NCBI GenBank assembly: GCA_902618245.1
Contig: CACMZR010000008.1
Location: 31,973 to 95,972, forward strand
Origin: an uncultured Bacteroidota bacterium
Lineage (GTDB): Bacteria; Bacteroidota; Bacteroidia; Flavobacteriales; Flavobacteriaceae
Length of the DNA stretch: 64,000 nt
Direction of reading: 5' to 3'
Under the pieces are notes generated by a model that had not been told where the DNA came from, did no database searches, and saw nothing but the letters and a program-made list of their open reading frames with translations. Below are positions 1-5,240 of the stretch, piece after piece. Position 1 is the stretch's first letter. Every line of letters begins with the position of its first letter. The position numbers and the translations under genes were made by a program.

Positions 1-636
1 ACTCTCAATAAATTTACCCCAAGCAGACATTGAAGCTTTATTAGATTGTCTAAATTTTCCAACATCAAATGCTTCCATAAAACTTTCAACTCCTACAAGA
101 ATATAATGTGTTTCTCCGTATGGACTTCTACCTAAATTGAAACTACCAAGAGTTACTCTTCGGTTTTTTGGCGCGTATTTTTTCTGATAATCTCCAAACC
201 CTTTTGCAAATTGAGAGGCATTTTTAACCTTCATCCAATAAACGGCTTGTATTGGATAGTTGCCAGGAGTACCGATTGAGACAAGACTTTTTCCAGCTGC
301 TGATGAGTGACTTTTGGTTAATTGGCCCATCTTTGTTAGATAAAGTTGAAAGTCTGTATTTTGACCACTAGAATATTGACTTCCCATTGCCTCCTGTGTG
401 CCGTAAAAGACAAGTGAATGTGACGCATTAATAGTACCGTCTCTAAAGTGATTCTCAAAAAGGAAAACCGTTACACCATCAGATTTACTTCCCTCTTTGC
501 TGAAGTAATCATCAGTTAGTTTTCCCACAGTTTCTACGTCTTCTGGGGCAACGTTAAAACTGTAGCTAGTCCAATAGTATTCTTGAGAAAAGAGAAAACT
601 ACTTGAAAATATAAATATTAGTATAAATTTTTTCAT
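1..636 (-). CDS. Secreted protein of unknown function, truncated by window edge (C-terminus missing)
   Basis: Manual reverse-strand reading gives an open frame from ATG at 636 to base 1: MKKFILIFIFSSSFLFSQEYYWTSYSFNVAPEDVETVGKLTDDYF... with a signal peptide. Absent from the ORF track, probably because no stop lies inside the window. Confidence 0.8.
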   Translation of the reverse strand, partial: MKKFILIFIFSSSFLFSQEYYWTSYSFNVAPEDVETVGKLTDDYFSKEGSKSDGVTVFLFENHFRDGTINASHSLVFYGTQEAMGSQYSSGQNTDFQLYLTKMGQLTKSHSSAAGKSLVSIGTPGNYPIQAVYWMKVKNASQFAKGFGDYQKKYAPKNRRVTLGSFNLGRSPYGETHYILVGVESFMEAFDVGKFRQSNKASMSAWGKFIES

Positions 637-729: not shown

Positions 730-1311
730 TCACAAAAATAGGCAGCCTTCTTGCTCAATTATTTCACCTGTGTCAATTAATTCTCTTGAGTAGTTTTTGT
801 CAGAGGGATGGAATATAAATTCCTGACCCTCTGAATTTGAAAAATGGAGTAAACCATCAATTACTTCATATTTATAAGTTATAGTATATTCAATTTCTTG
901 ACCTGTTCCATAGTAATCATAATCAAACCATAAAACATCCTCTTCATTCGTTTTAAATGTAATATTCCATTTTATCCCATCATAAACATTTTCGTCTCCT
1001 TTCCATCCTTTGCAATATGACACATCATTATTAATGTTGAAGAATGATATAAATACTGGCCCACCTCTTTTAAATTTGATATCTGAAAAGTCACTGTAAT
1101 AATTATCTGTATCTGCCCACATTGTATCATCATATTTGCTTAAAAATCTAGCACCACTAAATGAATTATATTGTTTCGGTAATCGATTAACTTGATAACC
1201 ACTTGTTTTAGTAAATGGATCTTGATTCCAAGACTCATATTGCCTAACATCAGTTTTAAAACAAGAAGAAATTAAAAAACTCAATAAGGCAGCTGCTAGT
1301 GATTTTTTCAT
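730..1311 (-). CDS. Tandem-family putative lipoprotein, copy 1 (unknown function)
   Basis: Signal peptide ending ISSC-FKTD; shared core SDFSDIKF...YFISFF.I.NDVSYCKGW...IEYTITYKYEVIDGLLHFSNSEGQ.FIFHPS..NYS..LIDT.EIIEQEGCLFL. Lacks the internal Cys pair found in the other copies. Confidence 0.85.
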   Translation of the reverse strand: MKKSLAAALLSFLISSCFKTDVRQYESWNQDPFTKTSGYQVNRLPKQYNSFSGARFLSKYDDTMWADTDNYYSDFSDIKFKRGGPVFISFFNINNDVSYCKGWKGDENVYDGIKWNITFKTNEEDVLWFDYDYYGTGQEIEYTITYKYEVIDGLLHFSNSEGQEFIFHPSDKNYSRELIDTGEIIEQEGCLFL

Positions 1312-1383
1312 TGATTTATGATTATCAAATATAATTTATAAACTTAATTAAAATTATAGATTATTATTTTTAGTTTATCCTAA

Positions 1384-1974
1384 TTATAAAAATAAACACC
1401 CTTCTTGTTCAATTATTTGGTTTGTATCAATTAATTCTTTTGAGTAATTTTTTTTTGATGGATGAAAAATAAATGATTGATCTTCAGAGTTGGAAAAATG
1501 GAGTAAACCATCAATTACTTCGTATTTATAGGTTATTGTATATTCAATTTCTTGGCCAGTCCCGTAATAATCAAAATCAAACCAAAAAACATCCCACTCA
1601 TCTTTTTTGATAGTTATGTCCCATTTTATTCCATTATAAATATTTTCACCTTTTTGCCATCCCTTACAATATGAAACGTCATTATCAATTTTAAAGAAGG
1701 ATATAAAATATGTAGCTGCGTTTTTAAATTTTATATCCGAAAACTCACTGTAATAATTATCTGTATCTGCCCACATTGAATCATCATATTTGTATAGAAA
1801 TTTGCAAGTCTTTACTCCACCACAGAAAACGTTATATTGTTGCGATAAACTGTTTATTTGTCCTCCACTTGCCCATTGACGTGGATCTAAATTTGCTGTA
1901 CCGTGTTGAATTACATCTGTCTTATAACAAGTAAAATGTATTAAGCACAAAGAAGCTACAAATATTTTTTTCAT
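1384..1974 (-). CDS. Tandem-family putative lipoprotein, copy 2
   Basis: Same core as copy 1; N-terminus MKKIFVASLCLIHFTCYKTDV; Cys pair FCGGVKTCKFL. Confidence 0.85.
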   Translation of the reverse strand: MKKIFVASLCLIHFTCYKTDVIQHGTANLDPRQWASGGQINSLSQQYNVFCGGVKTCKFLYKYDDSMWADTDNYYSEFSDIKFKNAATYFISFFKIDNDVSYCKGWQKGENIYNGIKWDITIKKDEWDVFWFDFDYYGTGQEIEYTITYKYEVIDGLLHFSNSEDQSFIFHPSKKNYSKELIDTNQIIEQEGCLFL

Positions 1975-2624
1975 CTGTTAATGATAATTACTTAAAACTA
2001 GAGGAACATACATCCCTCTAATTCAATTATTTCACTAGTATCAACAATATCTTTTGAATAATTTTTATCAGATGGGTGGAAAATAAATTCTTGACCCTCT
2101 GTATTTGAAAAATGAAGTAAACCATCAATTACTTCATATTTATAAGTTGTGGTATATTCAATTTCTTGACTTGTCCCATAATATTCATAATCAAACCAAA
2201 ACTCATCCCATTCATTTTTTTTTATTTTTATATTCCATTTTATTCCATCATAATTATTTTCACCTGGTCTCCATCCTTTGCAATATGAAACATCATTATT
2301 AATATCAAAGAAGGATATGAAATATGCAATGTTTAAAAATTGTACATCTGAAAAGTCACTATAATAATTTTCTGTATCTGCCCATATTGTACCGTCATAT
2401 TTAGATAAAAATTTACAACCTTTTCTTCCAAGACCTGCTGGATTGCAGAAGTATGTTAAGTCTTTTGGTTTTGTTGGGAGTTGTTGTCCACTAGCGAATG
2501 TGGCAGGATCTAAATTTTTTGAACCATATTGAACTATATCTGTTTTAAAACATGAAAACATGACTAAACATAAAGAAGCTACAAATATTTTTTTCATCTG
2601 TTAATGATAATTACTTAAAACTAG
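1951..2624. repeat. Direct repeat within lipoprotein array, period 623 bp; exact 51-bp repeat at 1951-2001 and 2574-2624
   Basis: agaagctacaaatatttttttcatctgttaatgataattacttaaaactag is present at both places; high similarity continues for roughly 200 bp on the higher-coordinate side. Confidence 0.85.
1998..2597 (-). CDS. Tandem-family putative lipoprotein, copy 3
   Basis: MKKIFVASLCLVMFSCFKTDIVQYGSKNLDPATFASGQQLPT; Cys pair FCNPAGLGRKGCKFL; shared core. Confidence 0.85.
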   Translation of the reverse strand: MKKIFVASLCLVMFSCFKTDIVQYGSKNLDPATFASGQQLPTKPKDLTYFCNPAGLGRKGCKFLSKYDGTIWADTENYYSDFSDVQFLNIAYFISFFDINNDVSYCKGWRPGENNYDGIKWNIKIKKNEWDEFWFDYEYYGTSQEIEYTTTYKYEVIDGLLHFSNTEGQEFIFHPSDKNYSKDIVDTSEIIELEGCMFL

Positions 2625-3220
2625 TAGAACATACATCCCTCTAATTCAATTATTTCACCAGTATCAACAATATTTTTTGAATAATCTTTATCAGATGGGT
2701 AGAAAATAAATTCTTGACCCTCTGTATTTGAAAAATGAAGTAAACTGTCAATTACTTCATATTTATAAGTTATGGTATATTCAATATCATTGCTAGTACC
2801 GTAATAATCATATTCAAACCATAACTCATCCCACTCATCTTTTGTGATCTTTATATCCCATTTTTTTCCATCTAAAATATTTTCACCTGTTCTCCATCCT
2901 TTGCAATATGAAACATCATTGTTAATATCAAAGAAGGATACAAAATATACCCAATTTAAAAAATGTACATCAGAAAAGTCACTATAATAATTTTCGATAT
3001 CTGACCAGAATGTATTATCATATTTGGCTAAAAACTTGCAGCCCTTTCTACCCAAACCTCCTGGATTACAAAATCGAGTATAACTTTGTTGCGCAGTAGG
3101 AAGTTGTTGTCCACTAGCGAATGTAGCAGGATCTAAATTTTTTGACCCATATTGAACTATATCTGTTTTAAAACACGAAAACATAACTAAACATAAAAAG
3201 CTAATGAATAACTTTCGCAT
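2621..3220 (-). CDS. Tandem-family putative lipoprotein, copy 4
   Basis: Segment CLVMFSCFKTDIVQYGSKNLDPATFASGQQLPT identical to copy 3; shared core. Confidence 0.85.
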   Translation of the reverse strand: MRKLFISFLCLVMFSCFKTDIVQYGSKNLDPATFASGQQLPTAQQSYTRFCNPGGLGRKGCKFLAKYDNTFWSDIENYYSDFSDVHFLNWVYFVSFFDINNDVSYCKGWRTGENILDGKKWDIKITKDEWDELWFEYDYYGTSNDIEYTITYKYEVIDSLLHFSNTEGQEFIFYPSDKDYSKNIVDTGEIIELEGCMFY

Positions 3221-3295
3221 TGATTTATGATTTGACTTAAATTTAATTATTGTTTTAAGATTAATGAAATTGCTATTCTTAATTCTTAGTCTAAT

Positions 3296-3856
3296 CTAAT
3301 TATAAAGCATGCAATCAACAAAATCTTTTATTTCATCAGTCCGATAAAAAATTAAAGAATCTCCTTCTGAGTTTGAAAAATGAAGTAAACTATCAATTAC
3401 TTCGTATCTATAGGTTATGGTGTATTCAATTTCTTGGTCTGTTCCATAATAATCATAGTCAAACCAAAACTCATCCCACTCATCTTTTTTGATTTTAATA
3501 TTCCATTTTATCGCACCGGATGTATTATCTCCTTTTTTCCATCCTTTACAATATGAAATATCTTTATCAATATTAAAAAAAGAGATGAAATATGGACCAG
3601 CATTCAAAAATCTGACACTTGAAAAATCACTGGAATAATTTTCTGTATCTGACCAGAATGTGTAATCATATTTGAATAAAAATTTACAGTTTTTTGGTGC
3701 ATTACAAAAACTTGTGTAGCTACGAGGAGCCGTTGGGTAAACTTGTCCATTATGCATACTGGCAGGATCTGTATTAGCTGTTTGGGATTGAACTATATCT
3801 GACTTAAAGCAAGAAGAAATTACAAAAAACGGAATTAGCAAAAGAATTTTTTTCAT
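3296..3856 (-). CDS. Tandem-family putative lipoprotein, copy 5 (shortened C-terminus)
   Basis: Start taken as ATG at 3856 (MKKILLLIPFFVISSCFKSD) instead of track start 3874; forms an ATGA overlap with the copy 6 stop; C-terminus diverged (DEIKDFVDCMLYN). Confidence 0.82.
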   Translation of the reverse strand: MKKILLLIPFFVISSCFKSDIVQSQTANTDPASMHNGQVYPTAPRSYTSFCNAPKNCKFLFKYDYTFWSDTENYSSDFSSVRFLNAGPYFISFFNIDKDISYCKGWKKGDNTSGAIKWNIKIKKDEWDEFWFDYDYYGTDQEIEYTITYRYEVIDSLLHFSNSEGDSLIFYRTDEIKDFVDCMLYN

Positions 3857-4464
3857 GCTCCGTAAAACGTACATCCTTCCATTTCAATAATTTCACCTGT
3901 ATCGATAGAATCTTTTGAATAATTTTTTTCTGAAGGGCTAAAAATAAAATTTTCATCATCAGAACTTGAAAAATGAAGTAAACTATCAATTACTTCATAT
4001 TTATACAGTATAGTGTATTCAATTTCTTGACTTGTCCCATAATACTCATAATCAAACCAAAATATATCCTCCTCATCTCTTTTGATTTCTATGTTCCATT
4101 TTATTCCATCATAAGTATTTTCACCTGGCCTCCATCCTCTGCAATATGATACATCATTAGTAATATCAAAGAAGGATATAAAATATCCAGAGTTTAAAAA
4201 TTGTATATCCGAAAAGTCACTGTAATAATTTTCTGTATCTGCCCAAAATGTATTATCATATTTTCGTAAAAATCGACAAAACTTTCTTCCAAGACCTGCT
4301 GGATCACAAATTATTGCTGTGTCAGTCATACCTCCAATACCACCATATTGAAGTCCACTCGCATCTCTAGGGGCAAGCTTATTTTTTTTCTCGAATTGAA
4401 CTATATCTGTTTTAAAACACGAAAATATTATAAAACATGATGCAGTTACAAATATCTTTTTCAT
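3853..4464 (-). CDS. Tandem-family putative lipoprotein, copy 6 (first in the array)
   Basis: MKKIFVTASCFIIFSCFKTDIVQF...; Cys pair ICDPAGLGRKFCRFL; shared core. Confidence 0.85.
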   Translation of the reverse strand: MKKIFVTASCFIIFSCFKTDIVQFEKKNKLAPRDASGLQYGGIGGMTDTAIICDPAGLGRKFCRFLRKYDNTFWADTENYYSDFSDIQFLNSGYFISFFDITNDVSYCRGWRPGENTYDGIKWNIEIKRDEEDIFWFDYEYYGTSQEIEYTILYKYEVIDSLLHFSSSDDENFIFSPSEKNYSKDSIDTGEIIEMEGCTFYGA

Positions 4465-4565: not shown

Positions 4566-5240
4566 CTAATCTAGTGACCAATTTATTTCATTTTTACCTA
4601 CCTCTTTTAAGTAGCTGTTACATTTACTAAAATGTTTATTCCCAAACCAAAAGCCTCTGTTAGCACTCAGTGGTGACGGATGACCACTTTTCAGAACACA
4701 ATGTTTAAGACTATCTATTAAGTTAGTTTTTTGTTTTGCATAACTACCCCACAACATAAAAACGATATTTTCCTTTTTCTCAGAAATTATTCTAATAACC
4801 GAATCAGTAAATGTTTCCCATCCTATTTTTTGATGACTGCCCGCTTTATTGGCCTCAACAGTTAATGTTGCATTTAGTAAAAAGACACCTTGCCTTGCCC
4901 ATGGAGTCAGGTCACCACTTTTTGGATATTCGAGTCCTAAATCCATTTGAATCTCTTTAAAAATGTTAATTAATGAAGGTGGATGAGAAATTGAATTAGA
5001 AACTGAAAAACAATAACCGTGAGCTTGTTTTGGACCATGGTATGGATCTTGCCCAATAATAACAACTTTAACATCATCTAATGGACATTCGTTGAACGCT
5101 CTAAAAATATCTTTACCAGGTGGATAGCAAACAGTTTTGCTATATGCATTTTTAACGAAATCTACTAAATCAGTGAAATAAGGCTTTCTAAATTCAGAGT
5201 TTAAAAGTTTTTCCCAATTAGAATTTATTTGAACCTTCAT
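4566..5240 (-). CDS. ung: Uracil-DNA glycosylase
   Basis: Motifs VVIIGQDPYHGPKQAHGYCFSV, LLNATLTVEANKAGSH, HPSPLSANRGFWF. Confidence 0.97.
   Translation of the reverse strand: MKVQINSNWEKLLNSEFRKPYFTDLVDFVKNAYSKTVCYPPGKDIFRAFNECPLDDVKVVIIGQDPYHGPKQAHGYCFSVSNSISHPPSLINIFKEIQMDLGLEYPKSGDLTPWARQGVFLLNATLTVEANKAGSHQKIGWETFTDSVIRIISEKKENIVFMLWGSYAKQKTNLIDSLKHCVLKSGHPSPLSANRGFWFGNKHFSKCNSYLKEVGKNEINWSLD

What the first reader, a model, noticed from the sequence alone, without database searches (positions are those of the whole stretch)
730..4464. Tandem array of six diverged paralogous lipoproteins of unknown function
Seen directly: six consecutive same-strand ORFs share signal peptide-Cys-(F/Y)K(T/S)D, a conserved core (SDFS..RF/QF...YF(I/V)SFF.I..D(V/I)SYC(K/R)GW...IEYT.(T/L)YKYEVID.LLHFS) and mostly a terminal IIE.EGC.F. 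The segment after the signal peptide, up to C..C(K/R)FL.KYD, varies strongly in length and sequence. I do not recognise the family. Inference: a lineage-specific expanded surface or periplasmic lipoprotein family with a conserved scaffold and a variable exposed segment, as seen for inhibitors, immunity-like proteins or adhesins. Function is unknown. This is the best candidate in the window for something undescribed.
Basis: partly seen in the sequence, partly recalled or inferred. Interest (0 to 1): 0.72.

Follow-up and report, generated by a model that had tools for sequence, protein, structure and literature searches.

The report
Tandem lipoprotein array in marine flavobacteria
Some NS5 marine flavobacteria carry an inserted, recombining row of up to seven copies of one small membrane-anchored protein that matches no catalogued family, is probably a tethered binding or protective protein rather than a classic surface protein, and whose actual job is still unknown.

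Summary
Six same-strand (minus) lipoprotein genes, 55-80% identical, fill window 730-4464; a seventh copy lies about 1.35 kb beyond the window's left edge. The genome is an NS5 marine-group relative (Flavobacteriaceae). The family matches no Pfam, NCBIfam, PADLOC or PDB entry. It occurs in 11 of 38 genomes of the genus, in two other sampled genera and singly in Aquimarina; a 397-genome phylum sample shows only this genome.

The array is an accessory insertion: eight relatives have ung directly beside a SUI1-like gene, this clade has the array between them, and other species carry it elsewhere. Copies form ortholog groups with conserved A-D-B/C order, an ATGA overlap, chimeras and at least one between-species core exchange (about 98% DNA identity against 64% for ung, 81% for recA).

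The segment differs between paralogs but is under purifying selection within ortholog groups, and the residues after the lipid cysteine (CFKTDI, net charge 0) do not meet the Bacteroidota surface-export signal that SusD proteins of these genomes have. Best reading: disulfide-stabilised, probably all-beta, periplasm-facing binding or immunity-type lipoproteins. Function unproven.

The parts
730..1311 (-). copy 1, lipoprotein, 193 aa; ortholog group F; linker lacks the Cys pair
1384..1974 (-). copy 2, lipoprotein, 196 aa; ortholog group E
1998..2597 (-). copy 3, lipoprotein, 199 aa; group B; its core is 95-98% identical at DNA level to a gene of a divergent species (G019)
2621..3220 (-). copy 4, lipoprotein, 199 aa; group C; 80% identical to copy 3, with no synonymous difference in the tail
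3296..3856 (-). copy 5, lipoprotein, 186 aa from the inner ATG (192 aa from ATG at 3874); group D; shortened tail; start overlaps the stop of copy 6 by 4 nt
3853..4464 (-). copy 6, lipoprotein, 203 aa; group A; first gene of the array
1..636 (-). part of the inserted block inside the window: 231-aa secreted protein with no Pfam match; the block continues left of the window with a DUF3500 gene, copy 7 and a 176-aa lipoprotein up to the SUI1-like gene
   Evidence: replaced by other genes in G010
4566..5240 (-). ung (uracil-DNA glycosylase), border of the insertion; in eight relatives ung directly abuts the SUI1-like gene

Best explanation
An accessory, recombining, operon-like array of paralogous outer-membrane lipoproteins inserted between ung and a SUI1-like gene. 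Each protein has a lipid anchor, a tether of about 40 residues that distinguishes the paralogs, and a conserved extracytoplasmic core of about 115 residues, probably all-beta, closed by an invariant Cys106-Cys196 disulfide. Most copies carry a second disulfide loop in the tether. I propose that the core is a binding domain held at the inner (periplasmic) face of the outer membrane, and that the paralogs form a small repertoire of inhibitor or immunity-type binders acting on incoming or secreted factors, kept and exchanged as a set. Shown: array, lipobox, family limits, ortholog groups, empty site, chimeras, between-species exchange, cysteine pattern, selection. Inferred: disulfides, all-beta fold, outer-membrane anchor, periplasmic orientation. 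Conjectured: the binding/immunity role and its target.
For: Lipobox and array. Cys106 and Cys196 in 52/52 members; tether Cys51 and Cys61 both present in 39 and both absent in 13, never one alone. Empty site ung-SUI1 in eight relatives, filled in G000, G010 and G016 and partly visible in G031. Six ortholog groups, with A-D-B/C order conserved at different genome sites. Copy 3 against the G019 gene: 95-98% DNA identity over about 420 bp, falling to about 50% in the flanks, against ung 64% and recA 81%. Chimeric G031 gene. Cargo between copy 1 and copy 7 differs between species. Purifying selection in core and tether within orthologs. CFKTDI net charge about 0 against SusD -2.5. Precedent for tandem lipoproteins as immunity proteins: S. 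aureus DUF576/TilA (PMC10730906).
Against: No toxin, effector or secretion gene was recognised next to any array examined. No PADLOC hit. Orphan immunity genes reported elsewhere show positive selection (PMC12247911); these do not. AlphaFold models are poor (pLDDT 37 and 41), so the fold is uncertain. Hydrophobic lag-2 periodicity of the core is not significant. In C. canimorsus a single K-D pair still gave weak surface display (PMC5080379), so surface exposure is not excluded.
Confidence: 0.33

Rival explanations
1. Lipocalin-like (calycin) ligand-binding lipoproteins: each paralog carries a small beta-barrel that binds a different small hydrophobic molecule or lipid in the periplasm, as transport or stress proteins.
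For: Low-confidence model is all-beta with 10 short strands; many of the top Foldseek hits are calycins (retinol-binding protein, FABPs, Bacteroides lipocalin-like BT_0869, avidin-like), none significant (best E of any hit 0.14). Core is 23% aromatic.
Against: No Lipocalin_4 match by HMM; hhalign against 18 Lipocalin_4 proteins gave 0.04% and 5% probability; no GxW motif (the residue before T-x-W is not conserved); patchy distribution and between-species exchange are not typical of a housekeeping carrier.
Confidence: 0.27
2. Surface-exposed lipoproteins whose paralog-specific tether faces outward, acting as phage receptors or decoys, adhesins or antigen-like variants.
For: Tether entropy is about twice the core's (1.66 against 0.81); gene conversion and copy-number change; Aquimarina-group members have C-(S/T)-E-S-D after the Cys, closer to an acidic export signal.
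Against: Genus members lack the K-(D/E)2 or acid-rich signal present in SusD of the same genomes (PMC5080379); tether pN/pS within orthologs is 0.17, no diversification.
Confidence: 0.2
3. Selfish or neutral expansion: the array is a recombination hot spot whose copies persist by homologous exchange with no paralog-specific function.
For: Chimeras, a copy with an in-frame stop (G019 C16), differing cargo and copy number.
Against: Orthologs are kept open with pN/pS near 0.2, with stable group identity and order across species.
Confidence: 0.12

Closest known systems
Staphylococcus aureus tandem lipoproteins (Lpl/Csa, DUF576; TilA)
   Same: Tandem, copy-number-variable array of paralogous lipoproteins at a variable locus; one member, TilA, is a proven immunity protein (PMC10730906).
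   Different: No sequence relation (no DUF576 hit), different phylum, and no lipase toxin recognised next to any array examined here.
Lipocalin_4 (PF13648) Bacteroidota lipoproteins and BT_0869
   Same: Small Bacteroidota lipoproteins with a predicted beta-rich core; one lies beside the single family copy in G880.
   Different: HMM and profile-profile tests negative; no GxW; two conserved core/tail cysteines.
[quoted passage not shown]
   Same: Accessory arrays of divergent genes without toxin partners, shared between strains and species.
   Different: Those described are SUKH-domain proteins in recombinase-associated clusters and show positive selection (PMC12247911); here lipoproteins with no Pfam hit, an integrase fragment only beside the G012 copy, and purifying selection.

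Membership tests
Bacterial lipoproteins | signal peptide with lipobox and invariant Cys | tested here: met
   Lipid Cys in 52/52 aligned members after a hydrophobic signal
Bacteroidota surface lipoproteins (LES) | K-(D/E)2 or Q-A-(D/E)2, or an acid-rich stretch, right after the +1 Cys | tested here: not met
   CFKTDI/CYKTDV, mean net charge -0.08 over +2..+6, 8% with two acids; 13 distinct SusD N-termini of the same set of genomes -2.46, 100%; rule from PMC5080379
Lipocalin / Lipocalin_4 | family HMM match | tested here: not met
   No Pfam hit for window copies or distant members; hhalign 0.04-5%
Lipocalin / Lipocalin_4 | GxW motif at the first strand | tested here: not met
   (G/N/D/E/Y)-T-x-W; glycine not conserved and spacing differs
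Lipocalin / Lipocalin_4 | eight-stranded barrel fold | tested here: inconclusive
   pLDDT 41; calycins frequent among non-significant Foldseek hits
S. aureus Lpl/TilA (DUF576) | DUF576 domain | tested here: not met
   No DUF576 hit at E <= 10
Immunity proteins (TilA or rAID type) | cognate toxin nearby, or measured neutralisation | tested here: inconclusive
   No toxin-like neighbour recognised in the loci examined; neutralisation not testable here
Tandem recombining paralog array | head-to-tail copies, chimeras, copy-number change | tested here: met

The most novel reading that the evidence does not exclude
NS5 marine flavobacteria share, across species, an accessory array of orphan immunity or inhibitor lipoproteins whose conserved cores are swapped by recombination while paralog-specific tethers are kept: an undescribed periplasmic protection repertoire in abundant bacterioplankton.
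Probability: 0.18. Interest if true: 0.66.

Novelty: new member of a known kind. Interest (0 to 1): 0.4.

Why it matters
NS5 is among the most widespread bloom-associated flavobacterioplankton and was described in 2018 as uncultured (PMC6013644). A protein family that matches no catalogued family, inserted at a defined site and exchanged between species, gives a concrete accessory trait to test. If the proteins are inhibitors or immunity factors, they would point to antagonism in the open ocean; if calycins, to a lipid or small-molecule binding role. Either way the set gives a well-defined family (52 sequences, six ortholog groups) for naming and structure work.

Tried and rejected
Pfam, NCBIfam, PHROGs, PADLOC and PDB sequence searches: nothing meaningful; the weak PHROG hits (best E 0.005) were not followed up. 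Phage, plasmid and viral-contig searches: no relatives, so a phage-borne origin is not supported. Weak family-level hits in G041, G066, G282, G337 and G401 match mainly the signal peptide and the segment after it: rejected as relatives. Weak hits at E > 0.03 around Aquimarina relatives: the ones inspected (L079, L080, L081) gave no similar lipoprotein: rejected. AlphaFold on the full protein and on the core: low confidence, so Foldseek results are only a hint. Lipocalin_4 profile comparison: negative, though the family profile is shallow (Neff about 2). Hydrophobic periodicity test for beta strands: not significant. Promoter and terminator scan: no more than chance. Papers on tandem paralogous lipoproteins in Flavobacteriia: none found.

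Full report
Observation. The six genes are as described, on the minus strand. A search of the whole genome finds seven members, all on contig C8; the seventh lies about 1.35 kb left of the window behind a 231-aa protein and a DUF3500 protein. Copies 6 and 5 overlap as ATGA and the other gaps are 23-75 bp, so co-transcription is likely; this is inference, since promoter scans gave only chance counts.

Host. A relative that carries the same array (L040, contig QFDA01000005.1) is the single-cell genome SCGC AAA795-G10, described as NS5 marine group (PMC6013644). By its gene coordinates and sequences this is G010 of the genome search. The window's genome has 97.5% recA DNA identity to G010, so the window is from an NS5 relative.

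Family limits. Relatives occur in 11 of 38 genomes of the genus, in two other sampled genera of the family (g83: G119 and G403 with three copies each; g191: G444 with one), and as one copy in Aquimarina algiphila and two related genomes. A phylum sample of 397 genomes shows none besides this one. Nothing is known by sequence: no Pfam, NCBIfam, PADLOC or PDB match, and only weak PHROG hits. Phages, plasmids and viral contigs are empty.

Insertion. In eight relatives examined the order is mutS2, ung, SUI1-like gene, DinB-like gene, with ung and the SUI1-like gene adjacent. Four of those eight (G001, G012, G019, G037) carry the family at another site. In the window's clade the array sits exactly between ung and the SUI1-like gene. 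The contents differ: G016 has only five copies there; G010 has all seven, with a 242-aa and a 150-aa gene between copies 1 and 7; G000 has the 231-aa and DUF3500 genes in that place; G028 has five copies followed by those genes (its ung side is off the contig). Some copies elsewhere lie next to tRNA-Arg genes (G015, G001) or an integrase fragment (G012).

History. The tree of 52 members groups copies mainly by type, not by genome: A (copy 6), B (copy 3), C (copy 4), D (copy 5), E (copy 2), F (copies 1 and 7). G001 and G015 have F-A-D-B/C order at other sites. So most duplications predate these species. Recombination is clear. The G000 copy 3 and the G019 gene share 95-98% DNA identity over about 420 bp, dropping to about 50% outside, while ung of these two is 64% and recA 81% identical; the G019 gene shares its neighbour genes (MBL-fold hydrolase, cupin) with the single G027 gene, which fits replacement of a resident gene body. 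The G031 gene joins a copy-4-like start to a copy-3 body. Copies 3 and 4 have no synonymous difference in the tail, and copies 1 and 7 have an identical tail protein, which suggests gene conversion.

Anatomy and selection. After the lipid Cys there is a tether of 37-47 residues, then a core of about 115 residues, then a tail ending near Cys196. Cys106 and Cys196 are in all 52 members. Cys51 and Cys61 are both present in 39 and both absent in 13; the tree suggests few loss events, so this supports a disulfide but does not prove it. The tether has twice the entropy of the core over the family and diverges 2.5 times faster between paralogs (pN 0.38 against 0.15), but within ortholog pairs pN/pS is 0.17 for the tether and 0.21 for the core. 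That is paralog identity under constraint, not an antigen-like segment.

Location. The Capnocytophaga export signal needs two acids after a Lys or polar residue; one K-D pair is very weak (PMC5080379). The family has C-(F/Y)-K-(T/S)-(D/E)-(I/V), net charge about zero, while all 13 distinct SusD N-termini examined in the same set of genomes have two or more acids. I infer an outer-membrane anchor facing the periplasm. This is a prediction.

Fold. AlphaFold gave low confidence (37 and 41), all-beta. Foldseek returned calycins frequently among non-significant matches. Profile comparison with Lipocalin_4 was negative. The fold is open.

Mechanism. The anatomy fits a set of tethered binders. Among tandem lipoproteins with a tested function, S. 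aureus TilA (DUF576) is an immunity protein against a secreted phospholipase (PMC10730906), and gut Bacteroidales keep orphan immunity arrays (PMC12247911). The patchy presence, exchange and copy change here resemble these. Lack of a toxin neighbour and purifying selection count against. I put immunity or inhibitor binding first by a small margin over calycin carriers, with low confidence.

Verdict. A real, previously unnamed family and a well-defined accessory insertion; the kind (tandem lipoprotein array) is known; function remains open.

Noticed in passing
L040 10673-11944 against L008 16697-18609: The genes between copy 1 and copy 7 differ between close species (242-aa and 150-aa genes in G010; 231-aa and DUF3500 genes in G000), so copies 1 and 7 bracket exchangeable cargo.
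   Followed up: partly
L091 1405-2046 (G012): A tyrosine-recombinase N-terminal part (Arm-DNA-bind_5) lies directly beside the single complete G012 copy.
   Followed up: partly
L045 12699-12773; L090 7287-7361: tRNA-Arg genes lie 0.2-0.3 kb downstream of family genes in G015 and G001, possible integration sites.
   Followed up: no
L044 1977-2591 (G019 C16): One family copy is split by an in-frame TAG, a probable pseudogene.
   Followed up: no
L075 2204-2608: A Lipocalin_4 lipoprotein sits next to the single family copy in G880 but not in G947, where a CAAX-protease-like gene takes its place.
   Followed up: partly
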